Positions 366 to 24,231 of a DNA stretch of 64,000 nucleotides are shown here, in pieces. A model generated the notes under the pieces. The model was not told the origin of the DNA. It saw only the letters and a list, made by a program, of their open reading frames with translations, and did not search any database. Each line of letters opens with the position of its first letter. Positions within the stretch are counted from its first letter, which is position 1. The stretch covers positions 62,001 through 126,000 of the forward strand of contig NZ_JABXYK010000010.1 in NCBI RefSeq assembly GCF_013378445.1, given 5' to 3'. Source of the stretch: Mycoplana rhizolycopersici. Its GTDB lineage: Bacteria > Pseudomonadota > Alphaproteobacteria > Rhizobiales > Rhizobiaceae. The translations under genes and the position numbers were made by a program.

Positions 366-884
366 TTAGCGGTGCAAGACCTGGCTATTGTTCCAGGCAA
401 CATACCGGCGGGAGCAATAGAGCAAGGCGGCTTCCTGATCGCTCCTGCGGACGCTGATGACGCGGCCGAACAGAACGCGATGCGTACCTTCATCGAAGGC
501 GCGCGTAAGCTCGCATTCGAAGCTCACCAGCGCATCCTCGAGCACCGGCGCATCGGTCTTGCCTTCCATCCATCGTCCGGCCGAGAAGCGCTCGGCCATG
601 GAAGTCTTGCCGCCGAACAGGTTGGACAGGCTCTCATGGGAGGGCGAAAGCGTATTGACGCAAAAGAAGCGAGCGCGCTCGAAGGCGGGGAAACAGGAAC
701 TCGTCCGGTTGATGCAGGCGAGCAAGGTCGCGGGTGCGTCGCTCACGCTGCACACGGCCGACGCCGTGAAGCCGAAGGGTCCGTCAGCCGCACGGGTCGT
801 GACGATGTTTACCGCGGCCCCGAGGCGGGACATGCCGTTGCGAAAATCCGTGCTTTCCACGGTCTGGAAGTCATGCATCATCAT
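366..884 (-). CDS. flavin reductase family protein (HpaC/RutF-like)
   Basis: About 172 residues with the FMN-binding split-barrel fold of NAD(P)H:flavin reductases: 'GAAVNIVTT' near residue 25, 'GFTASAVCSVS' near 40, 'FCVNTLSPSH' near 75 and a closing 'VLFGRVISV' strand. Such proteins supply reduced FMN by diffusion to a two-component monooxygenase. The LLM-class monooxygenase gene lies directly upstream in the same operon (18 bp gap), so the two probably form one oxygenase system. Three ATGs in a row (884, 881, 878) follow an AGGTG; any could be the start. It is the last gene of the operon that starts at 6489. Family sure, physiological partner inferred. Confidence 0.85.
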   Translation of the reverse strand: MMMHDFQTVESTDFRNGMSRLGAAVNIVTTRAADGPFGFTASAVCSVSDAPATLLACINRTSSCFPAFERARFFCVNTLSPSHESLSNLFGGKTSMAERFSAGRWMEGKTDAPVLEDALVSFECELTRAFDEGTHRVLFGRVISVRRSDQEAALLYCSRRYVAWNNSQVLHR

Positions 885-902
885 ACCCACCTGCGCATCC
901 CC

Positions 903-2198
903 TCAAGCCCGTGCCGGGCGTTCCAGGCCCATGCGGTCGCGTAGCGTCTTGCCTTCGTATTCGGTCCGGTAGAGGCCGCGCTCCTGCAGGATTGGCACGA
1001 CGAGATCGACGAAATCCGTCAGGCCCGAGGGGAAATGGGACGGCATGATGTTGAAGCCGTCGGCGGCACCCGTCGCAAACCAGGTTTCCAGCGTGCCTGC
1101 CACGTATTCCGGCGTGCCACACAGCACCCAGTGGCCGCGCGCGGCCGCCATGAGATTGTAGACGTCGCGCAGTCTCATGTTTTCGCGCTTCGCCTTGTCG
1201 AGCATGACTTTCGCAAAGGCATGGTAGTTGTCGGAGGGCACGAGATCAGCGGGGACCGGGCCGTCGAGGTCATAGGCGCTCATGTCTACCCCGAACCGGT
1301 CACTGAGCAGCGACAGTGCATTCGTTTCGCTGATGAAACCCTGGAGTTCCGCGAGCTTGTCGTGCGCTTCGCGTTCCGTCCGTCCGACGATCGGCATCAC
1401 GCCGGGCAGCACGACCATGGAGTCCTCGCTGCGCCCGTATTTTGCAAGCCTGTCCTTGACCGACCGGTAAAAGGCGCGTGCTTCGTCCAGATCCTGGGTG
1501 ACGGAGAAGACGACGTCGGCCGATTTCGCCGCCAGTTCCTGGCCAGGGCCAGATCCGCCAGCCTGGAGGACGACCGGCTGACCCTGCGGCGACCGGCCGA
1601 TGTTAAGCGGGCCCTTGACCTTGAAATGCTTACCCTCGTGGTCGAGCGGGCGCACCTTCGCGGGATCGATGTAAATGCCGGTCTCCCGGTCGGCCACGAT
1701 CGCGTCGTCGGCCCAGCAATCCCACAGGCCGCGCACGACGGTCAGGAACTCTTCGGCGATCTCGTAGCGCTTGGAATGGTCTGGGTGAAGAGTGCCGAAG
1801 TTGGCCGCGGCTGCCGGGTTGGCCGTCGTCACCGCATTCCAGGCCGCACGGCCGCCACTGATGTGATCGAGCGAGGCGAAGAGCCGTGCGACGGTGAAGG
1901 GATCCGAATAGGTGGTCGACACCGTGGCCCCGAGCCCGATGTGCTTTGTCGCACCGGCGACGGCCGAAAGCAGCGTGAGCGGTTCCAGCCGGGCGGTGTA
2001 GGAAGGATGAGCTGCCGGGTCGGCGTTGAGATTGTCTCCCATGAAGATGAGGTCGAACAGGCCGCGCTCGGCCTCTGCCGCGATCTGCCGGACCATCTCT
2101 ATGTCCTGGAAACTGTCCATCGCGCCGGGTACGCGCCAACCCGCGACGTGGCTGCCGGTTCCGAGCAGGAAGAGGCCGAAATGGATCTTGCGTGTCAT
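903..2198 (-). CDS. LLM-class flavin-dependent monooxygenase (NtaA/SnaA/DszA type)
   Basis: 431 residues, the usual size for the NtaA/SnaA/DszA/SoxA branch of bacterial luciferase-like monooxygenases, which use FMNH2 and O2 to attack C-N, C-S or heteroaromatic substrates. Visible hallmarks: N-terminal 'KIHFGLFL', an aromatic-rich 'GSHVAGWR' loop near 15-22, 'EPLTLLSAVAGAT' near 72, 'HISGGRAAWNAVTT' near 112 (the family SGGR-NxVT motif), and a C-terminal region typical of the branch. GGAG precedes the start by about 9 bases. It sits between the flavin reductase gene and the importer genes, so it probably performs the first oxidative step on the imported compound. It is longer than RutA (about 380 residues) and does not have RutA's sequence, so uracil oxygenase activity should not be assumed. 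Confidence 0.88.
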   Translation of the reverse strand: MTRKIHFGLFLLGTGSHVAGWRVPGAMDSFQDIEMVRQIAAEAERGLFDLIFMGDNLNADPAAHPSYTARLEPLTLLSAVAGATKHIGLGATVSTTYSDPFTVARLFASLDHISGGRAAWNAVTTANPAAAANFGTLHPDHSKRYEIAEEFLTVVRGLWDCWADDAIVADRETGIYIDPAKVRPLDHEGKHFKVKGPLNIGRSPQGQPVVLQAGGSGPGQELAAKSADVVFSVTQDLDEARAFYRSVKDRLAKYGRSEDSMVVLPGVMPIVGRTEREAHDKLAELQGFISETNALSLLSDRFGVDMSAYDLDGPVPADLVPSDNYHAFAKVMLDKAKRENMRLRDVYNLMAAARGHWVLCGTPEYVAGTLETWFATGAADGFNIMPSHFPSGLTDFVDLVVPILQERGLYRTEYEGKTLRDRMGLERPARA

Positions 2199-2204
2199 GC
2201 TATT

Positions 2205-2966
2205 TCATCTCCAGAAGACGTAACGGCGCTCGACAAAGCTGATGGCGCCGAAGAAGGCGAGGCTGATGGCGGACGCCACGATGATGGCGGCCCAGACCTT
2301 CACGAAATCGACCTGTAGCACCGCCTGGTAGATCACCCAGCCGAGCCCGCCATAGGCGCCGAGCATCTCCGTCACGATGGCGACGATGACGCTGCGTACG
2401 GTAGAGACCCGCATCCCCGCGATCACGAGCGGCAGCGCCGTCGGCAGGCGCAGCCGCCACAGGACTGTGAACCGGTCTGCCCCAAAGGACCGGATGAGAT
2501 CGACCGACTTGCGATCGACGCGGTCAAGGCCGGCGATCGTGCTGAGGAAGATGGTGAAGGAAACGGCGATCGCCACCATGACGATCTTCGAGGCCATGCC
2601 GATGCCGAACCACAGGAGAACCAGCGGCGAATAGGCGACGACCGGCACCGAGTTGATCGCGGTTGCCAGCGGCACCACGACGGAGCGCGCACTCGGGATC
2701 ATGGTGACGAGCACCGCCGCAGTCATGCCGGCAAGGCAGCCGATCGCATAGCCCGTGAACGATTCTGCGGCGGTGAAGCGGGCGGCGGCCAGGAGAGAAC
2801 CGGCATCGCTCGCCAACCCCGCCAGGATGCTGCTGACGGAGGGAAGAACATAGGCCGGCAGATCGAGGCCGCGCGCGCAGAGCTCCCAGACGGCAGCGAC
2901 GAGAAGCGCGCCGGCGATTCCGCGGGAAAACTGCCGAAGGCTGTCGGACGAAACGGACGCGCTCAT
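2205..2966 (-). CDS. ABC transporter permease (SsuC/TauC/ThiX type)
   Basis: 253-residue inner-membrane permease of the BPD_transp_1 family with about six hydrophobic segments and the cytoplasmic EAA-like loop near residue 165-190 ('LIRSFGADRFTVLWRLRLP'), which contacts the ATPase. Its ATG overlaps the stop of the upstream permease gene (ATGA, 2963-2966), implying translational coupling. A longer in-frame upstream extension overlaps that gene and was not used. With the permease at 2963-3760, the binding protein at 3757-4770 and the ATPase at 5617-6489 it forms a full THI5/NMT1-type importer. Confidence 0.9.
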   Translation of the reverse strand: MSASVSSDSLRQFSRGIAGALLVAAVWELCARGLDLPAYVLPSVSSILAGLASDAGSLLAAARFTAAESFTGYAIGCLAGMTAAVLVTMIPSARSVVVPLATAINSVPVVAYSPLVLLWFGIGMASKIVMVAIAVSFTIFLSTIAGLDRVDRKSVDLIRSFGADRFTVLWRLRLPTALPLVIAGMRVSTVRSVIVAIVTEMLGAYGGLGWVIYQAVLQVDFVKVWAAIIVASAISLAFFGAISFVERRYVFWR

Positions 2967-3760
2967 TGCTCGCCTCCCCAGAAGACGATCCTGCGCTCGG
3001 CGTAGGAAACCGCGCCATAGAGGCCCATGCCGAGGCAGGCGGAGACGACGATGGTGGCCCAGATGCCCGCGACGTTTTCGTTGTACATGGCCTGGAGGAG
3101 AAGCACGCCGAGGCCGGTGGTGTCGCCGAACCATTCGCCGACGATGGCACCGACGAGAGCAAGCGAGGAGGCGAGCTTCAGCGCGACGAAGAGCTGCGGC
3201 AGCGCGGCAGGCAGGTAGAGCCGGCGGAGGATCTGCGCATCTGAGGCGCCGAAACTGCGCATGAGTTGCACCTGGCGCGGATCGACGGCGGAAAAGCCGA
3301 GCATCGTGTTCACGGTCACCGGCAGGAAGCTGATGTAGAAGGAGATCACGGCCTTGGCGAACAGCGTATTGCCGAACCAGAGGACGACAACGGCGCCGAA
3401 GGCGATGACGGGTATGGTCTGAGAAACGATGAAGAGTGGAAAAAACAGTTCCCGCAGCGTCTGCCAGCGGTGGAAGACGACAGCCATGACGACGCCGAAC
3501 ATGCTGCCGGCGACGAAGCCGAGCGCCGTTTCAAGGAAGGTTCGCCAAAGACCTGCGAGGTAGGCGCCGGGCGTGGCCATAATGGTCGACGCGATCACGC
3601 TCGGGCGCGGCAGGTAGTAGGTGCGGATTCCGAACACGACGACCACCGCCTCGACGACGACGAGCGCAAGCAGAAGCCAGAGAACCGGCCTGAGAACGAC
3701 ACCGATCCTGCCCGTCGATACGACGGGCAGGTTGGCAGCAAGGGTAGCTGTGCCGCTCAT
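2963..3760 (-). CDS. ABC transporter permease (SsuC/TauC/ThiX type)
   Basis: 265 residues; N-terminal hydrophobic segment at about 23-45 after a short cytoplasmic tail, further membrane segments, and the EAA loop 'LMRSFGASDAQILRRLYLP' near 175. Start and stop both overlap neighbours by four bases (3757-3760 and 2963-2966), so binding protein, permease and permease are translationally coupled. It and the 2205-2966 product are homologous but clearly diverged, which suggests a heterodimeric channel. The second importer of the island (22739-23488 and 23470-24231) has the same two-permease arrangement. Confidence 0.9.
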   Translation of the reverse strand: MSGTATLAANLPVVSTGRIGVVLRPVLWLLLALVVVEAVVVVFGIRTYYLPRPSVIASTIMATPGAYLAGLWRTFLETALGFVAGSMFGVVMAVVFHRWQTLRELFFPLFIVSQTIPVIAFGAVVVLWFGNTLFAKAVISFYISFLPVTVNTMLGFSAVDPRQVQLMRSFGASDAQILRRLYLPAALPQLFVALKLASSLALVGAIVGEWFGDTTGLGVLLLQAMYNENVAGIWATIVVSACLGMGLYGAVSYAERRIVFWGGEQ

Positions 3761-4770
3761 AGGCGCCTTTCCTCGGCGGGAATGCTCTCGATGAAGCTGG
3801 CATTGAATGCGGCATCCAGATCGACCGGCTTGGAGATCACGCCATATTCGGCGAGCAGCTTGTTGGCCGAGCCGACCGCATCCTTGTCGATGGAGAAGAG
3901 CCCGTCCGTCGATGCCTTGCCGGCCGTCATCAGCGTCTTGACTTCCTTCAACATGAATTCCTGCTGGGCGCGGTTGAGCGTCGGCGAGATCTTCATGATG
4001 ATGTCGATCGCTTCTGCCTCGTTGGCGAAGGCTTCCTTCCATCCCTTGACGCTGGCGCGCAGGAACTTCGTGACGAGTTCGGGCTTTTCGGTCGCCGTCT
4101 GTTCCGAGACGATCAGCGTGTCGCGGGGGAAGGAGACACCGCTGTCTTCCGGCACGAAGAGGTTGAGATTGTCCTTACCGACGCGCTCGTTGATGACGTA
4201 GAGTTCGTTGTAGCGGGTGGCCGTGACGATATCGACCTGCTTGTCGACGAACGGGGTAACGGAGACCTGTTGCGGCTGGATGTCGACGTCGGACGGACTG
4301 GTTCCGGCCTTGGAGAGCATCGCCGACAGCACGTGGTTGGCGCCGGTGAACCATGTGGTGGCCGTCTTGCCCTTGAAGTCGGCGACCGACTGGACCGCAC
4401 CGTCCTTGTGAGAGACGAAGACGAAGGGCGTAACCTGATGCGCAACGCCGATGCAGACGATTGGCAGGCCCTTGTCGCGCGCGGCGAACACGCTGTCCGT
4501 GCCGCCGGAGAGGCCGAATGTGTCGGCACCGGTCGCTACCAGATTTTCGGTCAGAAGGTTCGGGCCGCCGGGGTTGATGGTGAGGTTGATCCCCTCTTCC
4601 TTGTAGTAGCCTTTTTCAAGGGCGACATAGAAGCCGGCAAACTGAGCCTGGGTCAGCCATTTCAGGCGAAGGCTGGCATTGACCAGATCCTGTGCGCTGG
4701 CCGGAGAAAGCCCCTGGAGGCTGAAGGCGGCGGCAGCGAAGGCCGCGAATAACGTACGTCGTCTGAACAT
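3757..4770 (-). CDS. THI5/NMT1-family ABC solute-binding protein
   Basis: 337 residues with a Sec signal peptide (RRR at 3-5, hydrophobic core to about 25, cleavage after ...SPASA). The mature part starts with the family signature 'LRLKWLTQAQFAGFYVA', then 'INPGGPN' and 'FKGKTATTW'. This family includes binding proteins for thiamine-pyrimidine (HMP/formylaminopyrimidine) and related heterocycles, taurine and aliphatic sulfonates. ATG at 4770 was chosen because AGAGG lies seven bases upstream; an in-frame ATG 42 bases further upstream has no such site. It is closely similar to the product of 21672-22679: both share the KW..QAQFAG start, the INPGGPN loop and a 'DKQ.D' segment. Periplasmic; ligand unknown. 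Confidence 0.9.
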   Translation of the reverse strand: MFRRRTLFAAFAAAAFSLQGLSPASAQDLVNASLRLKWLTQAQFAGFYVALEKGYYKEEGINLTINPGGPNLLTENLVATGADTFGLSGGTDSVFAARDKGLPIVCIGVAHQVTPFVFVSHKDGAVQSVADFKGKTATTWFTGANHVLSAMLSKAGTSPSDVDIQPQQVSVTPFVDKQVDIVTATRYNELYVINERVGKDNLNLFVPEDSGVSFPRDTLIVSEQTATEKPELVTKFLRASVKGWKEAFANEAEAIDIIMKISPTLNRAQQEFMLKEVKTLMTAGKASTDGLFSIDKDAVGSANKLLAEYGVISKPVDLDAAFNASFIESIPAEERRL

Positions 4771-4818
4771 GGAACCTCTCTGTTGGTTTTCGTCGTTATC
4801 GATTTCCTCCACCGGGCA

Positions 4819-5598
4819 TCATTGCCGGTAGTCCGCGCCCTCCCGGTCGAGCTGTCGCAGGAAGGCCGGCCACTCCCGTTCGCCGGCAATGAGAATGTCG
4901 CCCTTGCTTTCCCAGAACTGCCGCGCGGCCTTCTCGCAGACCTCGTGCGGCGGCACGACGAGCTTCGTACCGGAGGCGGTTGCCGCCTGGAGGTCGAGCT
5001 GGATGCGTGCGGCGCGTTCGAAATAGTAGAGCAACATGAAGGCTTCGCCCGGCGTGCGGCCGACGGTCAGGATGCCGTGATTGCGCATCAGCATCACCCT
5101 GTTGTCGCCCAGGTGGCTGATGATCCGCGCCTGTTCGTCAAGGTCGATCGCCACGCCTTCGTAGTCGTGAAACGCCTGGCGCTTGTAGAAGCGCATGGCG
5201 AACTGGCTGAGCGGTAGCAGGCCGTCCTCCTGGCAGGAGATGGCAACGCTCGCGTCGGAATGGGTGTGCAGCACGCAGACTGCGTCGTGGCTCGACTTGT
5301 GGATTGCCCCGTGGATGACGAATGCGGCCTTATTGACGGTATAGGGCGTGTCGTCGAGCTTGTTGCCTTGAGTATCGATGCGCACCAGGCTCGATGCGGT
5401 GATTTCCTCAAAGAGGAAGCCGTAGGGGTTAAGCAGGAACTGGTCCTCGTGGCCGGGTATCCGCATGGAAATGTGATTGTAGATCAAATCGTCCATGCCG
5501 AGCCGCGCGACCATGCGATAGCAGGCGGCGAGATCGACACGCGCCCTCCATTCGCTTTCGGAAATGTGGGCGGGGCGGCCCGAATAATGGTCGGTCAT
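4819..5598 (-). CDS. class II aldolase/adducin family protein
   Basis: 259 residues. 'YNHISMRIPG' near 40-49, 'HTHSDASVA' near 110 and 'MRNHGILTVG' near 170 supply the Zn-binding histidines of fuculose-phosphate-aldolase-like enzymes; members are aldolases, epimerases, decarboxylases or of unknown reaction. AGGAG lies 5 bases before the ATG. The gene lies between the ATPase gene and the binding-protein gene of the importer in one operon, so it should act on a product of the imported compound. The length is that of a single-domain stand-alone member. Its specificity cannot be read from sequence. Confidence 0.82.
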   Translation of the reverse strand: MTDHYSGRPAHISESEWRARVDLAACYRMVARLGMDDLIYNHISMRIPGHEDQFLLNPYGFLFEEITASSLVRIDTQGNKLDDTPYTVNKAAFVIHGAIHKSSHDAVCVLHTHSDASVAISCQEDGLLPLSQFAMRFYKRQAFHDYEGVAIDLDEQARIISHLGDNRVMLMRNHGILTVGRTPGEAFMLLYYFERAARIQLDLQAATASGTKLVVPPHEVCEKAARQFWESKGDILIAGEREWPAFLRQLDREGADYRQ

Positions 5599-5616
5599 GT
5601 CAGCTCCTCGTCTCTA

Positions 5617-6489
5617 TCAATGTCCGGCGACCTGGAAGGATTTCATGCTTTCCTCCTCGATCGCCTCGAGCAGGGTCTTCTTCAGGGAAATGAACTCGAG
5701 AGAGGTCACGATGTTGGCCTTGCGTGGGCGCGGCAGTTCGACCACCTGCTCGAGCTTGATGCGGCCGGGCCGGGCCGTCATCACCAGTACCCGGTCGCCG
5801 AGGAAAATCGCCTCGTCGACATCATGGGTGATGAAGAGGACCGTGCGCTTGTGCTTTTGCCAGACGTCGAGCAGCCAACGCTGCATCATCGTGCGCGTCA
5901 ACGCGTCGAGCGCACCGAAGGGCTCGTCGAGCAGCATCAGGTCGCGCTTGAAGAGGAAGGTACGCATCAGCGCCACGCGCTGGCGCATGCCGCCCGAAAG
6001 CTGGTTGGGATATTGGGCCTCGAAGCCGGCAAGGCCGAATTCGGGCAGCATGTCCATTGCCAGCTTACGCGCCTCGGCACGTGGCATGCCCTCGATCTCC
6101 AGCGCGAGGATCGCGTTGTCGATAACGTTGCGCCACGGCAGAAGGAGGTCGCGTTGCGGCATGAACGAGACCTTTCCGAGCAGGTCGGAGGCCGCGGAGC
6201 TGACGCCCTTGAGCCGCAGGATGTTGCCCGGATCGGGCTCCTCCAAGCCTGCGAGAATGTTGAAGAGCGTGCTCTTGCCGCAGCCTGACGGGCCAACAAC
6301 GGTCACTAGTTCGCCCGGGCGAATGGAGACCTCCAGGTCCTGGAGCGCTTTCACGGTACCGAAGGTCTTCGAGACCTGCCGCAGTTCGATGAGCGGGCGT
6401 TCTGCTCCGGCGGTATCCTGCACGGAGGCGAGATCCTTTGTGCCCGCATCGCCGGCGGCACCCTGGAAATCCCTGTCAACCAATGTCAT
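5617..6489 (-). CDS. ABC transporter ATP-binding protein (SsuB/TauB type)
   Basis: 290 residues: Walker [10 protein letters not shown] at 66-74, signature LSGGMRQR at 164-171, Walker B 'LMLLDEP' at 184-190, switch histidine near 222 ('ITHDVDEA'). The 30-residue N-terminal extension before the domain is slightly long. GGAGG precedes the ATG by six bases. It is the first gene of the leftward operon behind the 6490-6861 promoter region. It is the only SsuB/TauB-type ATPase in the first 24 kb, while two permease sets of matching type are present, so it may also energise the importer at 21672-24231. Confidence 0.92.
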   Translation of the reverse strand: MTLVDRDFQGAAGDAGTKDLASVQDTAGAERPLIELRQVSKTFGTVKALQDLEVSIRPGELVTVVGPSGCGKSTLFNILAGLEEPDPGNILRLKGVSSAASDLLGKVSFMPQRDLLLPWRNVIDNAILALEIEGMPRAEARKLAMDMLPEFGLAGFEAQYPNQLSGGMRQRVALMRTFLFKRDLMLLDEPFGALDALTRTMMQRWLLDVWQKHKRTVLFITHDVDEAIFLGDRVLVMTARPGRIKLEQVVELPRPRKANIVTSLEFISLKKTLLEAIEEESMKSFQVAGH

Positions 6490-6861
6490 GGCTTGCCTCC
6501 GTCATCGCAAAGATCCTTACGTATGCAGTTTTTGTCTACAGGGATACATGCAAGCTGCATGCCAAACTGATAGCTGCCGCGAGATTGATGTAATTTTGCC
6601 TTTCTTTCCCATTTTCGGCTCATTCTCACCGACTTTGACGATGCGGCAAACGTCGCTGCGGCATTATGAATCCATAAAATAGAATTTTGCATACATTATC
6701 AAATTTCCTGCGTGCAAAAAGTTCTATTTATTGTGCATTCAATGGTCGATTTTGAGGCACCCACCGCCGGCGGCGACCGGCATCTCCCCGCGGCTTGCCA
6801 CCGTCATGAAAAGGCCGGCGATGGACGTGGCGCCGGTCTCTCCACCTTTCGGCAGGACGCC
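6490..6861 (-). promoter_or_regulatory. promoter/operator region of the 6489-to-366 operon
   Basis: 372 bp without a gene, AT-richer than its surroundings. It holds two copies of a motif also found in the other promoter regions of the island: TTACGTATGCA at 6517-6527 (minus-strand TGCATACGTAA) and TGCATACAT at 6688-6696. A CATGCA/TGCATG inverted repeat lies at 6547-6561. On the minus strand, TTGATA (6702-6697) and TTTTAT (6679-6674) are 17 bases apart and could be a sigma-70-type promoter; the 6688-6696 motif would then lie in its spacer, as expected for a repressor site. The remaining 6703-6861 shows nothing recognisable. Confidence 0.55.
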
Positions 6862-7800
6862 TTACGCGAGCGCCTGCTTCATCATCCGGAAGAAGCCATC
6901 GTTCGAGGCGCGCTCTATGACGCGCGCGTTGACCGTGTAGTCCGGCCAGCGGTTTCCGAGCGCCGGCGGATGGATTGCGGAAAAGCCGCGCGTGATCTCG
7001 CCGGCGGTCTCGATCCGCACGACGGCCTCGCGCGAAGCTTCGATGAGGGCCGGGTTGAGCGCGCAGGCGCAGGTGAGAGAATCCGGATGCGTGCTCATGG
7101 GGCGGCCGTAACGGGCCTGCGCCATTTGCCGCGGCACGGCGGAAACCTTGCGGTAGAACTCCGACAGCGGCGTCTTCATCGCGAAGATCTCATCGAGCTG
7201 TTCCGTCTCGAAGACGCTGGATTTCAGCGTCAGCGTCCAGGTCGACAGCGTGATGTTGAAGCCCGCCTCGAAGACGATCCGCGCCGCCTCCGGATCGATG
7301 AAGAAGTTGTATTCCGCGCAAGGGGTGATGTTGCCGACGGAATTGTCCGTGCCGCCCATGATCCAGAGATGGCGCACCGCCTGGGCGATGCGCGGCTCCT
7401 TCATCACGGCCAGTGCGATGTTGGTAAGCGGCGCCTGCGCAAGGATGTCGATTTCACCCGGCTCCGCCATCACGCGCTCGATGATCGCGTCGACGGCGTG
7501 CATGGTCTCCGGACGTTGGCGGGCGATGGGAAAGTTGGCGCCGCTCATGCCGTCGTTACCGTGCATGGTCGAGGCCTCCCATGGCTTGACCATGGGGCGC
7601 CGCGCGCCGCAATAAACCGGAACCCTCCCGGAGAAGCCAGCCGCCTCGATCGTCGCCAGCGCGTTTTCGACCTGCTGGTCGAACGGCACGTTGCCGACGC
7701 AGACCGTCACCGCTTCGAGGGTCGAGCCGGGCGTCCGCATCGCCAGAAGCAGCGAGTAGGTGTCGTCGCCCGCCGTATCCGTATCGATGATGAGCCGCAT
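6862..7800 (-). CDS. inosine/uridine-preferring nucleoside hydrolase family (IUNH)
   Basis: 312 residues. The N-terminus has the Ca2+-binding motif of nucleoside N-ribohydrolases (IIDTDTAGDD, aspartates at 6, 8, 12 and 13). It also has 'APLTNIALA' near 128, 'IMGG' and the asparagine/aspartate loop 'EYNFFIDPEA' near 170. The reaction would be cleavage of an N-glycosidic bond to free base and ribose. The start was set at the ATG of MRLIIDTDT at 7800, overlapping by one base the stop of the upstream bicupin gene; longer in-frame versions run into that gene. Last gene of the operon starting at 12820. It suggests that the operon's substrate is a nucleoside or N-glycoside. Confidence 0.88.
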   Translation of the reverse strand: MRLIIDTDTAGDDTYSLLLAMRTPGSTLEAVTVCVGNVPFDQQVENALATIEAAGFSGRVPVYCGARRPMVKPWEASTMHGNDGMSGANFPIARQRPETMHAVDAIIERVMAEPGEIDILAQAPLTNIALAVMKEPRIAQAVRHLWIMGGTDNSVGNITPCAEYNFFIDPEAARIVFEAGFNITLSTWTLTLKSSVFETEQLDEIFAMKTPLSEFYRKVSAVPRQMAQARYGRPMSTHPDSLTCACALNPALIEASREAVVRIETAGEITRGFSAIHPPALGNRWPDYTVNARVIERASNDGFFRMMKQALA

Positions 7801-8729
7801 CAGTAGAACTCGAAGCCCATCGTGCGGGCATGGTAGTACAGCCCGCCGTCCTGCACGATCAGAAACTCGGCGCGGGTATTGCCATCGTTGTGGTGGCTGT
7901 GCTTGGCCGCAGGCGGCGTGACAAGCGTCGCCCAGGGCGACCAGTCGCATTTCTGATCGGCAACCATCGAGTAGGCCGGCTCGCCCGCGACGACCAGCGT
8001 GATGGCAGCCGAATTGTGCTTGTGCGGCGGCTGCTCGCTGTTGGGCTTCAACGTGTTGAGCGACAACGTCATCGTCGGGGTGATGTTGCGTGCGGCCTCC
8101 GTCTTCTCGGCGGAGAAGATCAGCGCGTGGCCGGACGTGCCCTCATTGGCATTGCGGCTGTAGACGACATCGAGCTGGTGGACGATCTCGTCGGCCGGAT
8201 AGTGGACGAACTGCACCGCGGCTTCTGCCCCTGTAGCCGGTGCCGACGCATCGAACATGAGCTGTGGATCGTTGCCGACGGCCCAGAAGACGCTGTCTTC
8301 CCTGGCGGTGATGGAGGACGCTACGCCACCCGGCAGCAGGAACACATCTGCCTTGCCAAGGGCGGCGCCTTCGCCGCCAACGGTAAGATCGGCGCTTCCC
8401 TTGATGACGTACCAGATCGACGCGGTGTTCGGCAGCGTCGTGTCGAGCGTCTCGCCCGCTTTGACGACGGCGTAGCGTGCCAGCATCAGGGGCGTCGTCG
8501 CCGGGAAGGCGCACTGCATCCGGTCGGACTGGTCGCAATTGATGAAGCCGGTTACATCCGACTTCATCGCCTTGGCCGGCTCGTCGATGAAGATGTGCCC
8601 CGGCACCGGCGGCAGCTTGATATTGAAGGCGTTGCCGGAGTTGAAATAGCGGCTGCGCGCCTGTGCCGCGCTTGCGGGATCACGCGGCAGTTGGACCGGC
8701 ATTTCCGCCATGTCGTTGGCAGTGCTCAT
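7800..8729 (-). CDS. bicupin protein (gentisate-dioxygenase-like fold)
   Basis: 309 residues with two cupin barrels. The N-terminal one (about 80-150) has 'SIWYVIKGSADL' but lacks the usual HxH. The C-terminal one (about 215-300) has 'PPHKHNSAAITLVV' and 'AKHSHHNDG', giving metal-binding histidines placed as in gentisate 1,2-dioxygenases and other bicupins. A ring-cleaving dioxygenase or an aminohydrolase of the ureidoglycine type are both conceivable. AGGAGATGAAAG precedes the ATG; its start overlaps the M20 hydrolase stop by four bases. Only the C-terminal barrel looks catalytic. Confidence 0.75.
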   Translation of the reverse strand: MSTANDMAEMPVQLPRDPASAAQARSRYFNSGNAFNIKLPPVPGHIFIDEPAKAMKSDVTGFINCDQSDRMQCAFPATTPLMLARYAVVKAGETLDTTLPNTASIWYVIKGSADLTVGGEGAALGKADVFLLPGGVASSITAREDSVFWAVGNDPQLMFDASAPATGAEAAVQFVHYPADEIVHQLDVVYSRNANEGTSGHALIFSAEKTEAARNITPTMTLSLNTLKPNSEQPPHKHNSAAITLVVAGEPAYSMVADQKCDWSPWATLVTPPAAKHSHHNDGNTRAEFLIVQDGGLYYHARTMGFEFY

Positions 8730-9982: not shown

Positions 9983-9986
9983 GTCC

Positions 9987-13126: not shown

Positions 13127-14209
<1,083 letters not shown>

Positions 14210-14265
14210 AAGAGCCTGCAGCCGGACAAACCTGCGACGATCAACAAGAACAAGGAGAACAGCTG

Positions 14266-15573: not shown

Positions 15574-15588
15574 CGAACGGATGCAGGA

Positions 15589-16533: not shown

Positions 16534-16534
16534 A

Positions 16535-19013: not shown

Positions 19014-19073
19014 ATCGCGACGGTCGCACCGTCCCCAGAGCAGCCGCGACGCCCGCGTCGGATAAGGAGAGAC

Positions 19074-20027: not shown

Positions 20028-20039
20028 GGCTAGGGGCTT

Positions 20040-21443
20040 TCAGAGATCTGGCCGGCGACGGTGGAAAGCGGTGACGCTCTGATAGGCCCCGCCGGCGCGG
20101 CAGAGCAGCGCCTCGGCAAACGGCCCGCCGACGAACTGCAACCCCATCGGAATCCCCTCGCTGCTCTGGCCGCAGGGCAGTGTGATCGTCGGATAGCCGC
20201 AGACGTCGAACGGCGCCGTGAAAGGCCCGATGGCGAGAATGGCTGCCGGATCCTCGCCCAGCGATGCCATGAAATCCATCGATGGGCCGGCGACCGGCAG
20301 GCCCGGGACCATAAGCAGGTCGATGCCGGAAAAAAGCCGTGCCATCCGACCGTTGAAATCGCGACGATCCTGCAGTGCCACAGCCATGTCGCGGGCCGTG
20401 TGCCTGCGGCCCCGCTCGATAAGGGCTGAAAGCCGTTCGCCGTATTCGGCGCTGCGCGAGGGATAGGCACCTTCGTGTGCAAGCGCACATTCGACGGCGC
20501 ATTGTACGGCCCAGCCGCGCAGGATCGCATCCGGATCTGGAAAGTCGACGGCGACGAAGCGCGCACCCAAGGCACTCATCACCTCGACGGCTGCCTCGAT
20601 GGAGGCCTGGACCTCGTCTGTGGCGCGCGAGGCGATGAAGGTGCGATCTATGCCGATGGTCAGTCCGGCGACGTCGGCCGACAGTGCTGCCTCGAGATAG
20701 TCGTCGAGCGGCGCCGGCGCGGACGTCGGATCGGCGGCATCGGTACCTGCGATCACGCCAAGCAGGGCGGCAGCGTCTGCGGTGCTTCGTGCCATCGGTC
20801 CCACGTGATCCAGGGATTCGGCGAGCGGAAAGACGCCGTGGCGGCTGACGCGGCCCCAGGTCGGCTTGATGCCGACCACGCCGCAGCAGGAGGACGGCAG
20901 GCGGATCGAACCGCCTGTATCCGTGCCGAGCGTCGCATAGGCGAGCCCCGATGTCACGGCAACGCCGGAGCCCGACGACGAGGTGCCCGTCCAGTGTGCG
21001 GGTCCGAACGGGTTCACGGGCGGGGTGATCGACGGGTGGTGATCCGCATAGACGCCTTCGGTCAACGTAAGCTTGCCGAGCATCACAGCACCTGCCGCCC
21101 TCAACCGCGCCGTGGCAGTCGATTCTTCGGTAATCGGCTGTCCAGCGAAGACGGGACTGCCGAAGCCGGTTGGAATGTCGACGGTGGCGAATGCATCCTT
21201 TACGGCCAGCGGAATGCCGTGCAGCGGTCCACGCCAGTTGCCCGCGGCAATCTCGGCATCGGCCGCCCTGGCGGCCGCGCGTGCCACGTCCGGCGCCACT
21301 GCCGCGTAGGAATTGAGCCTTGCATCATGAGCGGCGATGCGTTCGAGCATCAGCTCTGTCAGTTCGCAAGAGGTCACCGCACCAGAGCGGATGGCGTCGG
21401 AAAGCCGGGTAAACTCGGCGGCCCAAAGGGGCTGGTCGGTCAT
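20040..21443 (-). CDS. amidase signature-family hydrolase
   Basis: 467 residues with the Ser-cisSer-Lys triad: Lys82 in 'AVKDAFAT', the serine-rich 'GTSSSGSG' at 153-160 and Ser179 in 'DTGGSIRLPSS'. Length and motifs fit GatA/AtzF/indoleacetamide-hydrolase-like amidases that act on small amides. GAGAGG precedes the ATG. It is monocistronic, convergent with the dehydrogenase gene (12 bp gap) and divergent from the second THI5/NMT1 importer, with which it shares a regulatory region. It probably deamidates a pathway intermediate. Confidence 0.9.
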   Translation of the reverse strand: MTDQPLWAAEFTRLSDAIRSGAVTSCELTELMLERIAAHDARLNSYAAVAPDVARAAARAADAEIAAGNWRGPLHGIPLAVKDAFATVDIPTGFGSPVFAGQPITEESTATARLRAAGAVMLGKLTLTEGVYADHHPSITPPVNPFGPAHWTGTSSSGSGVAVTSGLAYATLGTDTGGSIRLPSSCCGVVGIKPTWGRVSRHGVFPLAESLDHVGPMARSTADAAALLGVIAGTDAADPTSAPAPLDDYLEAALSADVAGLTIGIDRTFIASRATDEVQASIEAAVEVMSALGARFVAVDFPDPDAILRGWAVQCAVECALAHEGAYPSRSAEYGERLSALIERGRRHTARDMAVALQDRRDFNGRMARLFSGIDLLMVPGLPVAGPSMDFMASLGEDPAAILAIGPFTAPFDVCGYPTITLPCGQSSEGIPMGLQFVGGPFAEALLCRAGGAYQSVTAFHRRRPDL

Positions 21444-21671
21444 TCTCTATCCTCTCGTGATACGGCGCATGGCCGGCTAGCTCACCGCTATTGAGCCTAA
21501 AAAATCATATTTGTCAAAATTGCATACATAATAAGCAAAGTGTGCATCCTCAATTTTGATTTGGTGAATATTTAGCGCTGAAAGTCAGCGACAACGCGTA
21601 TCTGGATGCGAAACATGGTTGGCACGTATATTGCAGATGATTTTATGCATACACCAACTAAGGGGAACAGA
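21444..21671. promoter_or_regulatory. divergent promoter/operator region (amidase / second importer)
   Basis: 228 bp, AT-rich. TGCATACAT at 21521-21529 and TGCATACA at 21646-21653 match the motif in the two other promoter regions of the island. A possible rightward promoter is TTGGCA (21619-21624) and TTTTAT (21641-21646), 16 bases apart; the 21646 site would overlap the -10 end, a position suited to repression. No TPP-type riboswitch core was found. Confidence 0.5.
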
Positions 21672-22679
21672 ATGAACCTCCCGCTCAAGTGCAGCATCGC
21701 TGCCATCGCATTCGCCGCCGCCTTGGTCGGCGGCTCACTGCCCGCAAAGGCGGCGGAAGCCGTTTCCGTCCGGCTGAAATGGGTCGCGCAAGCCCAGTTC
21801 GCGGGAGTTTACGTTGCCAAGGCCAAGGGCTTCTACGAGGAAGCCGGCCTCGATGCGACCATCAATCCCGGCGGACCCAACATCAATGTCGAGACGCTCG
21901 TCGCCTCGGGTGCCGACACGTTCGGCATCGCCAGCGGCACGGAAGGTGTGCTCTATGCTCGCGAAAAGGGGTTGCCGCTGACCTGCATTGGCATGTCGCA
22001 GCAGATGACCCCCTTTGCCTATGTCGCCTATGACGATTCCGGCATCAACTCGGTGAAGGACTTCAAGGGCAAGACGGTCGCGACCTGGATGACCGGCCCG
22101 CAGTTCACGCTCTATTCGGTTCTGGCGCATGAAGGTCTGGCGCAGAGCGATGCCAACATCGTCTCCCAGCCTTTCTCCATGCAGCCCTTCATCGACAAGC
22201 AGTACGATGTCGCGACGGTCACGCTCTACAACGAGCTGAACACGCTGAAGGAACAGGGCATCAACAACATCAAGATCTTCCTCCCCGACGATTCCGGTGT
22301 CACGACCCAGCAGGATTCGATCGTCACTTCCGAAAAGATGATCGCGGAAAAGCCGGAAGTCGTGCAGGCTTTCCTCAACGCCACGCTGAAGGGCTGGAAG
22401 TACGCCTTCGAGAACAAGAGCGAGGCGGTTGATATCGTCATGGCCGCCGGCTCGGGGCTCGAGCGCAAGCACCAGGAATTGATGCTTGAAGAGATCGAGA
22501 AGCTGATGCGTGCCAAGCTCGGCGGCAGCGAGGGCCTCGGCGCCATCGACATGGCCTCGATCAAGGCCGTGCACGACAGCCTGATAGAGTACAAGGCCTT
22601 GAATACCGAAATCGATCTGGAATCCGCCTTCGACCAGAGCTTCTGGGCCAAGGTTCCGGCAGACGCAAAGTCCATGTGA
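21672..22679 (+). CDS. THI5/NMT1-family ABC solute-binding protein (second copy)
   Basis: 335 residues with a Sec signal peptide (core 9-24, cleavage near ...AKAA). The mature start 'VRLKWVAQAQFAGVYVA' and 'INPGGPN' are nearly those of the product at 3757-4770; 'FKGKTVATW' and 'DKQYDVATVTLYNEL' also match, so the two receptors are paralogous. AGGGGAAC precedes the ATG at 21672; an in-frame ATG 66 bases upstream lacks such a site. It would bind the same or a related heterocycle in the periplasm. First gene of a three-gene operon with two permeases. Confidence 0.9.
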   Translation: MNLPLKCSIAAIAFAAALVGGSLPAKAAEAVSVRLKWVAQAQFAGVYVAKAKGFYEEAGLDATINPGGPNINVETLVASGADTFGIASGTEGVLYAREKGLPLTCIGMSQQMTPFAYVAYDDSGINSVKDFKGKTVATWMTGPQFTLYSVLAHEGLAQSDANIVSQPFSMQPFIDKQYDVATVTLYNELNTLKEQGINNIKIFLPDDSGVTTQQDSIVTSEKMIAEKPEVVQAFLNATLKGWKYAFENKSEAVDIVMAAGSGLERKHQELMLEEIEKLMRAKLGGSEGLGAIDMASIKAVHDSLIEYKALNTEIDLESAFDQSFWAKVPADAKSM

Positions 22680-22690
22680 GGCATGCGCAT

Positions 22691-22719
22691 ATGCCCGGCG
22701 GTCCGATATCGCCGGGCAT
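22691..22719 (+). terminator. intercistronic stem-loop after the binding-protein gene
   Basis: ATGCCCGGCG (22691-22700) pairs perfectly with CGCCGGGCAT (22710-22719) around a 9-base loop, followed by a short TTTT. It lies in the 59-bp gap between the binding-protein gene and the first permease gene. Hairpins here commonly stop part of transcription or protect the binding-protein mRNA, giving more receptor than permease. Confidence 0.65.
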
Positions 22720-22738
22720 ATTTTACCACGGAGTTTGC

Positions 22739-23488
22739 ATGAAACGACATCTCCCGCTGGCGCATCCCGCCACCGCCCTGGTTATGGCGACGTGCGCCTG
22801 GCTCGTCCTCGTCCCGCTGCTTGGTGTTCCACCGCGCTATCTTCCCTCACTCGGACGCGTCGTTGCGGACGCAATTTCAGTCTGGCCGGAACTCCTGAAC
22901 AGCTTCCTGCGTACGCTTTCCGAAGCCGTGCTCGGCTTTCTCGCTGGCGCAGCACTCGGCATCGCCTTTGGCGTGGCTTTCGCCCGCAGCCGCGTGCTGG
23001 AGCGCTCGGTCTTGCCGCTCTTCATCGCGCTGCAGAGCGTCCCGGTCATCGCCTTCGGCGCAGTCGTCGTCATCTGGTTCGGCAACAGCCTCTTGTCCAA
23101 GGTGATGATCGCACTGTACCTCTCCTTCTTTCCCGTTGCGGTCTCGACACTTCGCGGTCTGCAGGCGATCGATGAGAAGCGCGTCGCGCTCTTCCTCAGC
23201 TTCGGCGCCAATCGCATGCAAGTCTTCTGGCGGCTCGCGCTGCCGACCGCCCTGCCCTCGATCTTCACCGGCCTGAAACTCGCCGTGTCGCTTAGCCTTA
23301 TAGGTGCGATCGTCGGCGAATGGTTCGGCGATACAGTCGGTCTCGGCGTGATGCTGCTGCAGGCGCTCTATTTTGAGCAGGTCGAGCGCATCTGGGTGCT
23401 GATCGTCGTCTGCGGCCTGCTTGGTACCTTGCTCTATGGGCTGCTCGCCTTCATCGAAAGGAAATATGTATGGTGGCGTCCCGCCTGA
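22739..23488 (+). CDS. ABC transporter permease (SsuC/TauC/ThiX type)
   Basis: 249 residues, hydrophobic from residue 10 on, with the EAA-like loop 'LFLSFGANRMQVFWRLALP' near 155-173 and 'GAIVGEWFGDTVGLGVMLL' near 195, the latter nearly identical to the 2963-3760 permease ('GAIVGEWFGDTTGLGVLLL'). This shows direct paralogy of the two importers. ATG at 22739 follows GGAG by five bases. The next permease starts inside its last codons (23470). Confidence 0.9.
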   Translation: MKRHLPLAHPATALVMATCAWLVLVPLLGVPPRYLPSLGRVVADAISVWPELLNSFLRTLSEAVLGFLAGAALGIAFGVAFARSRVLERSVLPLFIALQSVPVIAFGAVVVIWFGNSLLSKVMIALYLSFFPVAVSTLRGLQAIDEKRVALFLSFGANRMQVFWRLALPTALPSIFTGLKLAVSLSLIGAIVGEWFGDTVGLGVMLLQALYFEQVERIWVLIVVCGLLGTLLYGLLAFIERKYVWWRPA

Positions 23489-24231
23489 ATGCGCTGCTCA
23501 ACGCATGCCTGCCCGTTGTCTTTGCCATCTTCGTCATGGGTTTCGTCTGGGAGGTCGCCGTTGCCTTCGGCGAGGTGCCGCAATATGTGCTGCCGAGCCC
23601 GAGCGGCATCATTGCGGCCGCGGTTCAACGTTTTCCGCAGATCGCGGACGGCCTCTGGATCACCACATTCGAGGCCCTGGCAGGGTTCGCTGTCGGGTCG
23701 GTGATCGGCCTGGCGCTCGCATGTCTTTTTCTGCTGGTGCCGCCGACGAGAGCACTTCTGCTCCCGCTGGTCGTGGCGCTAAACAATGTTCCCTCCATCG
23801 CCTTCGTGCCGCTGGCGCTATTGTGGTTCGGCATGGGGCCCGCCTCGAAAATCGCCATCGCGGCGCTGGCTGTCAGCTTCGCCGTCCTGCTGGCTGCGCT
23901 GGAGGGATTTTCACGAACCGAGGACGGACAGGTAAACCTGCTGCGCAGCTTCGGCGCGAACCGGCTTGCGATCCTCTGGCGCCTGCGCCTGCCGGCTGCC
24001 ATGCCCTCCATCATTACCGGTTTGCGGATCGGCCTTGCCAGAAGCACGATCGCCGTGATCGTGGCCGAAATGCTGGGTGCTTATAAAGGCATCGGCCAGA
24101 TCGTCTACCGTGCGACTGCCGAGATGGACTCCCTCACCGTCTGGTCAGCCATCCTCGTATCATCGGCAACCAGCCTGGCGCTCTACGGTCTACTGGTACT
24201 GATCGATCGAAGATTGGTCTGGTGGCAGTAA
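23470..24231 (+). CDS. ABC transporter permease (SsuC/TauC/ThiX type)
   Basis: 253 residues; EAA-like loop 'LLRSFGANRLAILWRLRLP' near 155-175 and 'STIAVIVAEMLGAYKGIG' near 190, matching the 2205-2966 permease ('SVIVAIVTEMLGAYGGLG'). It overlaps its partner by 19 bases. No ATPase gene follows: the next gene, lsrG, is on the other strand. The importer 21672-24231 therefore lacks an energy subunit of its own. Confidence 0.9.
   Translation: MVASRLNALLNACLPVVFAIFVMGFVWEVAVAFGEVPQYVLPSPSGIIAAAVQRFPQIADGLWITTFEALAGFAVGSVIGLALACLFLLVPPTRALLLPLVVALNNVPSIAFVPLALLWFGMGPASKIAIAALAVSFAVLLAALEGFSRTEDGQVNLLRSFGANRLAILWRLRLPAAMPSIITGLRIGLARSTIAVIVAEMLGAYKGIGQIVYRATAEMDSLTVWSAILVSSATSLALYGLLVLIDRRLVWWQ

What the first reader, a model, noticed from the sequence alone, without database searches (positions are those of the whole stretch)
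366..24231. Catabolic island for an unidentified N-heterocycle/nucleoside, built around two THI5/NMT1 importers
A flavin monooxygenase and reductase pair, nucleoside hydrolase, bicupin, M20 ureido/carbamoyl hydrolase, two alpha/beta hydrolases, aminotransferase, amidase, class II aldolase and D-hydroxyacid dehydrogenase are linked to three importers and one GntR regulator. I see no match to the known rut, reductive pyrimidine, xanthine/allantoin or thiamine-salvage gene sets as wholes. N-glycosidic cleavage, oxygenation, deamidation, transamination and aldol cleavage together would degrade a modified nucleoside or pyrimidine-like compound. The individual families are seen in the sequence; the pathway is inference.
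Basis: partly seen in the sequence, partly recalled or inferred. Interest (0 to 1): 0.75.

Follow-up and report, generated by a model that had tools for sequence, protein, structure and literature searches.

The report
Conserved pathway for a pyrimidine-like nucleoside
A Rhizobium-like bacterium carries about 24 clustered genes, whose core is conserved in many other bacteria, that most likely import a pyrimidine-like ring compound and its sugar-linked (nucleoside) form and break them down by a route for which no published description was found; the exact compound is not known.

Summary
The core is one conserved unit: 54 of 80 fetched bicupin loci (alpha-, beta- and gammaproteobacteria) keep SDR, aminotransferase, alpha/beta hydrolase, M20 and bicupin together, nearly always with an NMT1-type importer and a class II aldolase. 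The nucleoside hydrolase and the sugar-type (CUT1) importer are an add-on: both in 23 of the 54, neither in 31; Rhizobium subbaraonis has lost both by two deletions. A putative operator, TGYATACRT, occurs five times in 64 kb, each in one of the cluster's three promoter regions. Relatives of the SDR-aminotransferase-hydrolase-M20 quartet sit with thymidine phosphorylase, a uridine-phosphorylase relative, DeoC and a BMP importer on two Rhizobium plasmids. The binding-protein model is closest to thiamin/aminopyrimidine-binding proteins. The same genome has a separate dihydropyrimidine locus with M20 and NMT1 paralogues.

Best reading: a GntR-controlled catabolic pathway for a pyrimidine-like base (NMT1 entry) and its riboside (CUT1 plus hydrolase entry), using an interchangeable flavin or TauD oxygenase and a gentisate-dioxygenase-like bicupin. 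It fails the tests for Rut, reductive and thiamin-salvage systems. Substrate and step order remain inference.

The parts
366..890 (-). flavin reductase, RutF-like
   Evidence: PF01613 E 3.8e-36; best NCBIfam RutF 209.6 bits, below its cut-off 254.75
903..2198 (-). two-component flavin monooxygenase, NtaA/DmoA family (LLM)
   Evidence: TIGR03860 540.6 bits, cut-off 279.7; nearest solved: YtnJ, nitrilotriacetate monooxygenase
2205..2966 (-). ABC permease A of importer one
   Evidence: PF00528 on the longer ORF 2205-3134; co-conserved
2963..3760 (-). ABC permease B of importer one
   Evidence: PF00528 on the longer ORF 2963-4042; co-conserved
3757..4812 (-). NMT1/THI5-type binding protein of importer one (NMT1a)
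   Evidence: PF09084; AF2 model nearest thiamin- and FAMP-binding proteins
4819..5598 (-). class II aldolase/adducin-fold enzyme (aldolase or decarboxylase)
   Evidence: PF00596; NF005451 354.8 bits, cut-off 207
5617..6489 (-). ABC ATPase of importer one, possibly shared with importer two
   Evidence: PF00005; type B relatives of importer two have an ATPase gene inside, the window copy does not
6519..6527 (-). putative operator TGCATACGT before the ATPase sub-operon
6688..6696 (+). putative operator TGCATACAT before the ATPase sub-operon
   Evidence: one of two exact matches of the 13-base word in the genome
6862..7803 (-). inosine-uridine type nucleoside hydrolase (accessory riboside entry)
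   Evidence: PF01156 E 1.4e-75 on ORF 6862-7950; DTDTAGDD and E.NF..DPEAA motifs invariant in 29 sequences
7800..8729 (-). bicupin, gentisate-1,2-dioxygenase-like
   Evidence: Cupin_2; His236, His238, His277, His279 invariant in 41 sequences; Foldseek top hits gentisate/salicylate dioxygenases
8726..10084 (-). M20 hydantoinase/carbamoylase-family amidohydrolase (start may lie nearer 10012)
   Evidence: TIGR01879 377.3 bits, cut-off 204
9987..10865 (-). alpha/beta hydrolase 1
   Evidence: PF00561
10908..12038 (-). PLP-dependent aminotransferase
   Evidence: NF004870 512.4 bits, cut-off 351
12044..12826 (-).
   Evidence: NF004779 364.7 bits, cut-off 261
12856..12864 (+). putative operator TGCATACGT in the divergent SDR/UgpC promoter region
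13032..13040 (+). putative operator TGTATACGT in the divergent SDR/UgpC promoter region
13052..14209 (+). CUT1 importer ATPase (UgpC/MalK type)
   Evidence: NF008653 500.7 bits, cut-off 432
14266..15573 (+). CUT1 binding protein
   Evidence: PF01547; nearest solved: sugar-binding proteins
15589..16533 (+). CUT1 permease 1
   Evidence: PF00528
16442..17380 (+). CUT1 permease 2 (start probably near 16520)
   Evidence: PF00528
17384..18208 (+). alpha/beta hydrolase 2
   Evidence: PF00561
18234..19013 (+). GntR/FCD regulator
   Evidence: PF00392 + PF07729
19074..20027 (+). D-2-hydroxyacid dehydrogenase (accessory)
   Evidence: PF02826; present beside the cluster in G004, G006, G164, not seen in the N. 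galegae copies
20040..21443 (-). amidase-signature enzyme, type B module
   Evidence: PF01425; 67-69% identical in the type B clusters of G089 and G026, beside the NMT1b importer
21521..21529 (+). putative operator TGCATACAT in the divergent amidase/NMT1b promoter region
21606..22679 (+). NMT1/THI5-type binding protein of importer two (NMT1b)
   Evidence: PF09084
22676..23488 (+). ABC permease C of importer two
   Evidence: PF00528
23470..24231 (+). ABC permease D of importer two
   Evidence: PF00528

Best explanation
A catabolic regulon for a pyrimidine-like N-heterocyclic base and its N-riboside. SHOWN by comparison: the core genes are one conserved unit; three promoter regions share one candidate operator; the nucleoside hydrolase and CUT1 importer form a separable module gained or lost together in the type A loci; the flavin monooxygenase and a TauD-type oxygenase replace each other. 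INFERRED: the free base enters through the NMT1 importers; the nucleoside enters through the CUT1 importer and is split by the hydrolase to ribose and base; the flavin monooxygenase with its reductase (or TauD in Variovorax relatives and P. viridiflava) oxidises the ring, the bicupin cleaves a C-C bond of the oxidised product, an alpha/beta hydrolase and the M20 enzyme remove the acyl/carbamoyl part to leave an amino acid, the aminotransferase turns that into an oxo acid or semialdehyde, and the SDR and the class II aldolase-fold enzyme finish it. The amidase/NMT1b module feeds a related, amide-bearing substrate into the same steps. GntR/FCD is the regulator.
For: Co-conservation: 54 of 80 loci have AmTr+abh1+M20+bicupin, with SDR 54/54, aldolase 53/54, ABC ATPase 53/54, NMT1 51/54, GntR 48/54. 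Nucleoside hydrolase and CUT1 binding protein: both in 23, neither in 31, one alone in 0 of the 54; two deletions in R. subbaraonis, window 6962-7747 and 13450-17361, with no CUT1 binding-protein homologue at E 1e-30 in that genome nor in the genomes of L066 and L067, while three control genomes ring. Oxygenases: of 54 type A loci the LLM orthologue is seen in 38 and just outside the fetched flank in 3 more, TauD in 12, both in none, neither seen in 1 (L076). Operator: TGYATACRT 5 matches in 64 kb, all in three cluster promoter regions, 0.46 expected, 0 of 100 shuffles reach 5; looser TGYATRCR in 22 of 23 SDR/UgpC, 18 of 22 ATPase and 8 of 13 type B amidase/NMT1b upstream regions against 1.2, 0.9 and 0.5 in shuffles. 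Nucleoside link: quartet relatives (48-64% identity) beside genes annotated as BMP importer, a uridine-phosphorylase relative, thymidine phosphorylase (over its cut-off), DeoC and phosphopentomutase on two Rhizobium plasmids. Base link: NMT1a model nearest thiamin- and FAMP-binding proteins (E 2e-23, 3e-23) and then THI5 (5e-18), before TauA/SsuA (2e-15 and weaker). In the same genome M20 and NMT1-importer paralogues adjoin PRK08318-family (PreA, name recalled) and D-hydantoinase/dihydropyrimidinase-family genes. Bicupin: gentisate-dioxygenase-like fold and histidines.
Against: No substrate is known and no gene here was tested. Only 3 independent pairs on supported branches for the hydrolase/CUT1 link, too few for significance. 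Outside type A the link breaks: 5 type B loci and L069 have the hydrolase without this CUT1 importer, and L188 and L189 (2 of 16 order-level loci) have another CUT1-type importer beside M20 with no nucleoside hydrolase in view. The core occurs without nucleoside genes in 31 of 54 type A loci, and no nucleoside hydrolase was seen in the 16 order-level quartet loci. The bicupin also pairs with TauD in a cluster with opine-dehydrogenase-like and arginase-family genes, so it need not mark pyrimidines. In the nucleoside hydrolase the segment that should hold the catalytic His reads HPDS, and His82 is not invariant (numbering recalled). The operator word was spotted by eye in these promoters and then tested; the strict form occurs in only 6/23, 13/22 and 4/13 of the same upstream regions, the loose form in only 4 of 32 A-core and 2 of 11 type B GntR regions, and many of the 23 loci are close relatives. 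The flavin reductase was seen in only 13 of 54 type A and 2 of 13 type B loci.
Confidence: 0.5

Rival explanations
1. Thiamin-pyrimidine salvage or breakdown: the ThiY-like importer takes up formylaminopyrimidine or HMP, the M20 enzyme deformylates (as YlmB does, recalled), the aminotransferase turns aminomethyl into aldehyde, the SDR interconverts aldehyde and HMP; LLM, bicupin and aldolase degrade it.
For: Closest solved binding proteins are thiamin- and FAMP-binding; M20, SDR and aminotransferase could all converge on a 5-formylpyrimidine (inference).
Against: No Rfam match over gathering score, hence no TPP riboswitch, in the window or in 7 quartet loci, 137 kb (7 of the 16 order-level and plasmid-type loci I held were given); no TenA, ThiD or ThiM family among the cluster's Pfam hits; M20 is of the carbamoylase subfamily; nucleoside genes are unexplained.
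Confidence: 0.15
2. A pyridine-type or other N-heterocycle and its riboside (for example a nicotinate- or B6-like ring): LLM or bicupin opens the ring, the class II aldolase-fold protein acts as a ring decarboxylase.
For: The aldolase-fold protein has distant solved relatives called decarboxylase (NovR, 89 bits) and Mlr6791 (46 bits; a vitamin B6 enzyme by recall); bicupin is gentisate-dioxygenase-like; an arylmalonate-decarboxylase/racemase-family gene occurs in 7 loci by cluster count.
Against: Best solved aldolase matches are a structural-genomics protein and adducin; pyrimidine-nucleoside phosphorylase neighbours of the quartet; M20 carbamoylase family points to a ureido or N-acyl acid.
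Confidence: 0.2
3. Sulfonate or N-/S-alkyl substrate: LLM and TauD replace each other as C-S or C-N cleaving oxygenases and the NMT1 importer is of the Ssu/Tau kind.
For: TauD and the LLM orthologue exclude each other in type A loci; TauD is closest to taurine dioxygenase, 217 bits, below cut-off 313; permease A resembles SsuC/TauC weakly.
Against: Binding-protein model is closer to thiamin/FAMP proteins than to TauA/SsuA; SsuA family score 82.5, cut-off 163.5.
Confidence: 0.08
4. A mere neighbourhood of several unrelated catabolic operons.
For: The cluster is modular: amidase/NMT1b, CUT1/hydrolase and 2-hydroxyacid dehydrogenase are each absent from many relatives.
Against: Core conserved across alpha-, beta- and gammaproteobacteria and the modules share one operator motif.
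Confidence: 0.07

Closest known systems
Reductive pyrimidine pathway (PreTA/PydAB, dihydropyrimidinase, M20 beta-ureidopropionase; in this genome with an NMT1 importer)
   Same: Paralogous M20 (38%) and NMT1 importer (32-39%) in the same genome; M20 then aminotransferase logic
   Different: No dihydropyrimidine dehydrogenase or dihydropyrimidinase in the cluster; oxygenases instead; GntR regulator
Rut pathway (RutA-F)
   Same: Two-component LLM oxygenase with RutF-like reductase and alpha/beta hydrolases that score with RutD
   Different: LLM is NtaA/DmoA family, RutA model 66.7 bits against cut-off 498.3; no RutB-, RutC- or RutE-type family among the cluster's Pfam hits
Thiamin-pyrimidine salvage (ThiXYZ, YlmB, TenA)
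   Same: ThiY-like binding-protein fold, an amidohydrolase
   Different: No TPP riboswitch found, no TenA/ThiD; oxygenases present
Gentisate/salicylate 1,2-dioxygenase bicupins
   Same: Fold and conserved HxH...H set
   Different: 11-17% identity in the structural alignments; metal motif lies in the C-terminal cupin; 43 bits against equivalog cut-off 442.1
Nucleoside hydrolases (RihA/RihC, UriH)
   Same: PF01156 and the DxDxxxDD and ExN motifs
   Different: Below all four equivalog cut-offs listed

Membership tests
Rut pathway | RutA equivalog (TIGR03612) | tested here: not met
   66.7 bits, cut-off 498.3; none over cut-off in the whole genome
Rut pathway | RutF equivalog (TIGR03615) | tested here: not met
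   209.6 bits, cut-off 254.75; still the best of the families listed
Rut pathway | RutB isochorismatase-type hydrolase and RidA-type RutC in the cluster | tested here: not met
   No such Pfam family among the cluster genes
Reductive pyrimidine pathway | dihydropyrimidine dehydrogenase (PRK08318 family) and dihydropyrimidinase (TIGR02033) in the cluster | tested here: not met
   Over cut-off on contig C5 (and a second TIGR02033 hit on C30), none on C10
Reductive pyrimidine pathway | M20 ureido-acid hydrolase of hydantoinase/carbamoylase family | tested here: met
   TIGR01879 377.3, cut-off 204
Thiamin-pyrimidine salvage | ThiY-class binding protein | tested here: inconclusive
   Nearest folds 4nmy and 3ix1 at 25-26% identity; ligand not tested
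Thiamin-pyrimidine salvage | TPP riboswitch | tested here: not met
   0 Rfam matches in window and 7 related loci
Gentisate 1,2-dioxygenase | three-histidine Fe site in a GDO-type cupin | tested here: inconclusive
   His236/238/277/279 invariant in 41 and top Foldseek hits, but metal geometry was not examined
Gentisate 1,2-dioxygenase | equivalog score | tested here: not met
   43 bits, cut-off 442.1
Ureidoglycine aminohydrolase bicupin (ureide pathway) | UGlyAH-like bicupin as nearest relative | tested here: not met
   4e2q rank 43 and YlbA 1rc6 rank 45, behind GDO, oxalate decarboxylase and quercetinase
IU nucleoside hydrolase | PF01156 with DxDxxxDD and ExN...DPEAA motifs | tested here: met
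NtaA/DmoA flavin monooxygenase family | TIGR03860 over cut-off | tested here: met
   540.6, cut-off 279.7
Any pathway above | substrate and product of the enzymes | not testable with these tools
   needs biochemistry

The most novel reading that the evidence does not exclude
A further aerobic route of pyrimidine catabolism, beside the reductive, oxidative (barbiturate) and Rut routes: an interchangeable flavin (LLM) or 2-oxoglutarate (TauD) oxygenase oxidises a substituted, possibly RNA- or plant-derived, pyrimidine, a gentisate-dioxygenase-like bicupin cleaves its carbon skeleton, and an M20/aminotransferase/SDR tail finishes it, with a plug-in module (CUT1 importer plus nucleoside hydrolase, or BMP importer plus phosphorylases) for the nucleoside form.
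Probability: 0.3. Interest if true: 0.8.

Novelty: new variant of a known kind. Interest (0 to 1): 0.58.

Why it matters
If right, it defines a widespread but unnamed pathway by which soil, plant-associated and marine bacteria use a nucleobase-type compound, gives functions to several families without one (NF004870 aminotransferase, NF004779 SDR, the GDO-like bicupin, ThiY-like NMT1 importers), and offers directly testable predictions: one regulon, two entry routes, two interchangeable oxygenases. It also warns that a ThiY-like binding protein need not mean thiamin salvage.

Tried and rejected
Allantoin/ureide pathway (bicupin as ureidoglycine aminohydrolase, with M20 and aminotransferase): rejected because the fold is nearest to gentisate/salicylate dioxygenases and UGlyAH ranks 43. 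Rut, reductive pathway and thiamin salvage as wholes: rejected on the tests above. Seven literature searches for such a cluster or substrate (listings and abstract starts seen only) gave no description of it; three more (dihydrouridine catabolism, pyrimidine regulons, trigonelline ring cleavage) gave none either; the library holds open-licence papers only. Passages seen by term search, not whole papers: PMC5343134 (RutR regulon, nothing on this cluster) and PMC12709175 (2'-O-methylnucleoside catabolism). Whole-genome motif search for further regulon members: only the two exact matches, both in this cluster, and one 1-mismatch site (contig C13) between an ORF without a Pfam match and an ABC ATPase; 33 sites at up to 2 mismatches against 15 for the reversed control, so no further member is claimed. 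My first count of TauD (13 loci by ORF clustering, 8 of type A) missed four type A loci and was redone. One search had no positive control; one search repeats it with three. Mobile-island status was not pursued.

Full report
WHAT IS THERE. The window is bases 62001-126000 of contig C10 of a 5.6 Mb genome. The nearest named relative found at this locus is Rhizobium subbaraonis JC85 (bicupin 95% identical). One long minus-strand run (12826 down to 366) encodes SDR, aminotransferase, alpha/beta hydrolase 1, M20, bicupin, nucleoside hydrolase, ABC ATPase, class II aldolase-fold protein, NMT1 binding protein, two permeases, flavin monooxygenase (LLM) and flavin reductase. A divergent plus-strand run encodes a CUT1 importer, alpha/beta hydrolase 2, GntR/FCD and a 2-hydroxyacid dehydrogenase. 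An amidase and a second NMT1 importer (without its own ATPase gene) follow, divergent from each other. Sugar-kinase/SorC/ABC genes from 24647 on look like a separate system.

CO-CONSERVATION. A genome-collection scan with a bicupin alignment found 115 relatives, of which the tool kept the best 80. By thresholds that I set, 54 of 80 are 'type A' (aminotransferase, hydrolase 1, M20 and bicupin together; SDR in all 54, aldolase 53, ATPase 53, NMT1 51, GntR 48, flavin reductase only 13), 13 are 'type B' (amidase and no aminotransferase; LLM 13 of 13, SDR 13, aldolase 12) and 13 are neither (one of these, L069, has bicupin, nucleoside hydrolase and NMT1 importer genes but none of the genes of the other side; it holds no masked bases, and the cause is unknown). 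Type A spans Rhizobiaceae, Roseobacter relatives, Xanthobacter, Azorhizobium, Bradyrhizobium, Methylobacterium, Roseomonas relatives, Variovorax relatives and Pseudomonas. Many Rhizobiaceae rows are near relatives. The window unites both types: its amidase/NMT1b/permease module is 57-76% identical to that of two type B genomes.

THE RIBOSIDE MODULE. Among the 54 type A loci the nucleoside hydrolase and the CUT1 binding protein are both present in 23 and both absent in 31, never one alone. In R. subbaraonis, otherwise 91-92% identical in DNA, two separate deletions remove window 6962-7747 (inside the hydrolase) and 13450-17361 (rest of UgpC, binding protein, both permeases); the blastn pieces show no other gap of that size from window base 1 to 23582. 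No homologue of the binding protein at E 1e-30 was found in that genome or in the genomes of L066 and L067, which also lack both, while the query rings in three control genomes (one search gave the same without a control). On the bicupin tree type A needs 4 changes of this state, and the two genes move together in the 3 independent pairs on supported branches, too few for significance. Against it: 5 type B loci and L069 have the hydrolase without this CUT1 importer, and L188/L189 have a different CUT1-type importer without a hydrolase in view. The 29 hydrolases compared share DTDTAGDD and E.NF..DPEAA motifs; that these bind calcium and ribose is recalled family knowledge.

ONE REGULON. Reading the three promoter regions showed a shared word; TGYATACRT then occurs 5 times in 64 kb, all in those regions (0.46 expected; 0 of 100 shuffles reach 5). 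Because the word was found in the regions tested, the fair test is elsewhere. The strict word occurs in 6 of 23 SDR/UgpC, 13 of 22 ATPase and 4 of 13 type B amidase/NMT1b upstream regions (shuffle expectation 0.2-0.3 each); the looser TGYATRCR in 22 of 23, 18 of 22 and 8 of 13 (expectation 1.2, 0.9, 0.5), but only in 4 of 32 regions of A-core loci, whose GntR is mostly about 50% identical, and in 2 of 11 type B GntR regions. In the whole genome the longer word TTGCATACATWAT has two exact matches, both here. That GntR/FCD is the binder is inference.

THE QUARTET AND NUCLEOSIDES. The aminotransferase, searched in 397 genomes of the order, hits 17 (16 besides this one). In the 16 fetched loci aminotransferase, hydrolase and M20 lie together in 16, SDR is seen in 15 (not in L188, cut by the contig end; in L189 it lies apart), an NMT1 binding protein in 15 (L191 has TctA/TctC transporter genes instead), the bicupin in 3, the LLM in 5 and the nucleoside hydrolase in 0. 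So the quartet with an NMT1 importer is the wider, perhaps older, core. In plasmids 9 records have the aminotransferase at E 1e-100 or better: 4 Neorhizobium (hydrolase and CUT1 present), 2 Rhizobium, 2 Methylobacterium, 1 Tistrella. In the 2 Rhizobium plasmids the quartet (identity of the CB3060 copy to the window: SDR 54, aminotransferase 51, hydrolase 64, M20 48%) is followed by a nucleoside phosphorylase and DeoC, preceded by an importer annotated as BMP family, and flanked by phosphopentomutase, thymidine phosphorylase and an NMT1 importer with GntR. In the CB3060 copy the first phosphorylase is nearest uridine phosphorylase (216.6 bits, cut-off 280.3) and the second is over the thymidine-phosphorylase cut-off (675 against 570.7). 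This is a second, differently built nucleoside entry to the same enzymes, with pyrimidine-type phosphorylase genes.

WHICH BASE. The NMT1a model (mean pLDDT 85.9) is nearest the thiamin-bound protein 4nmy and the FAMP-binding protein 3ix1, then THI5; TauA and SsuA come later. The same genome has on contig C5 a PRK08318-family gene (746 bits, cut-off 335; PreA by recall), a D-hydantoinase/dihydropyrimidinase-family gene (603.7, cut-off 393.25), an M20 38% identical and an NMT1 importer 32-39% identical to those of the window; I read this as the reductive pyrimidine locus. So M20 plus NMT1 importer probably serve pyrimidines elsewhere in this genome, and plain uracil/thymine probably has its own route; the window's substrate is more likely a different or substituted base (inference). 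No RutA over cut-off and no riboswitch.

OXYGENASES. Of the 54 type A loci the LLM orthologue is seen, whole or cut by the locus end, in 38 and lies just outside the fetched flank in 3 more (L070, L072, L073; 73-76%). A TauD gene is in 12 others (11 Variovorax-group loci and P. viridiflava; 68-100% identical to the query copy), and none has both; L076 shows neither. In P. viridiflava TauD lies between the NMT1 and aldolase genes. Of six TauD-bearing genomes searched, three have no related monooxygenase at E 1e-60 and three only 45-51% paralogues elsewhere. The bicupin model (pLDDT 86.7) is nearest gentisate/salicylate dioxygenases, and His236, 238, 277 and 279 are invariant in 41 sequences. 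Five further bicupin loci outside types A and B have more distant TauD genes (34-40%); one has opine-dehydrogenase-like and arginase-family neighbours, one a PhyH and one a different luciferase-family gene, so the bicupin's chemistry is broader than this cluster.

VERDICT. Ten searches of one open-access library showed no published description, which does not prove there is none.

Noticed in passing
window 24647-31971: FGGY sugar kinase, SorC-type regulator and an RbsA-type sugar ABC importer directly after the cluster; beside the cluster in relatives only 24-37% matches were seen (G004, G026).
   Followed up: partly
window 31239-34899: A 683-aa ORF with an internal class II aldolase domain, and an aldehyde dehydrogenase.
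   Followed up: no
window 37209-41705: Third NMT1-type ABC system in the window, with its own GntR/FCD regulator and a TauE-like gene.
   Followed up: partly
window 41765-46128: FAA-hydrolase-family and class III CoA-transferase genes, probably another catabolic operon.
   Followed up: no
L077, L079, L081, L082, L093: Kaistia/Bosea-type clusters add aldehyde dehydrogenase, DAO and (in four) sarcosine-oxidase-alpha-like genes, extra NMT1 proteins without permeases (one, as called, with little room for a signal peptide) and, in four, an ECF-type CbiQ gene; the NMT1 proteins might be enzymes.
   Followed up: partly
L099, L102, L112, L115, L121: Bicupin with a TauD gene in the same locus outside the cluster, in L112 with an opine-dehydrogenase-like and an arginase-family gene: a wider oxygenase pair of unknown role.
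   Followed up: partly
L124 2001-2909: A contig listed as viral (IMG/VR) encodes hydrolase 1, M20 and bicupin relatives (67, 62, 53%); bacterial flank or phage-borne genes, not resolved.
   Followed up: no
L039 (N. galegae pNgVX), L058 (Shinella), L041 (Neorhizobium EC2-8): Several cluster genes match in split pieces, i.e. look frameshifted in these records (sequence error or decay).
   Followed up: no
window 5597-6682 and 6712-7806, plus strand: Long ORFs opposite real genes (ABC ATPase, nucleoside hydrolase) without a Pfam or NCBIfam match: probably shadow ORFs.
   Followed up: yes
G000 contig C30, 21148-22524: A second D-hydantoinase-family gene over cut-off (531 bits) without M20 or NMT1-importer relatives in the 16 kb around it.
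   Followed up: partly
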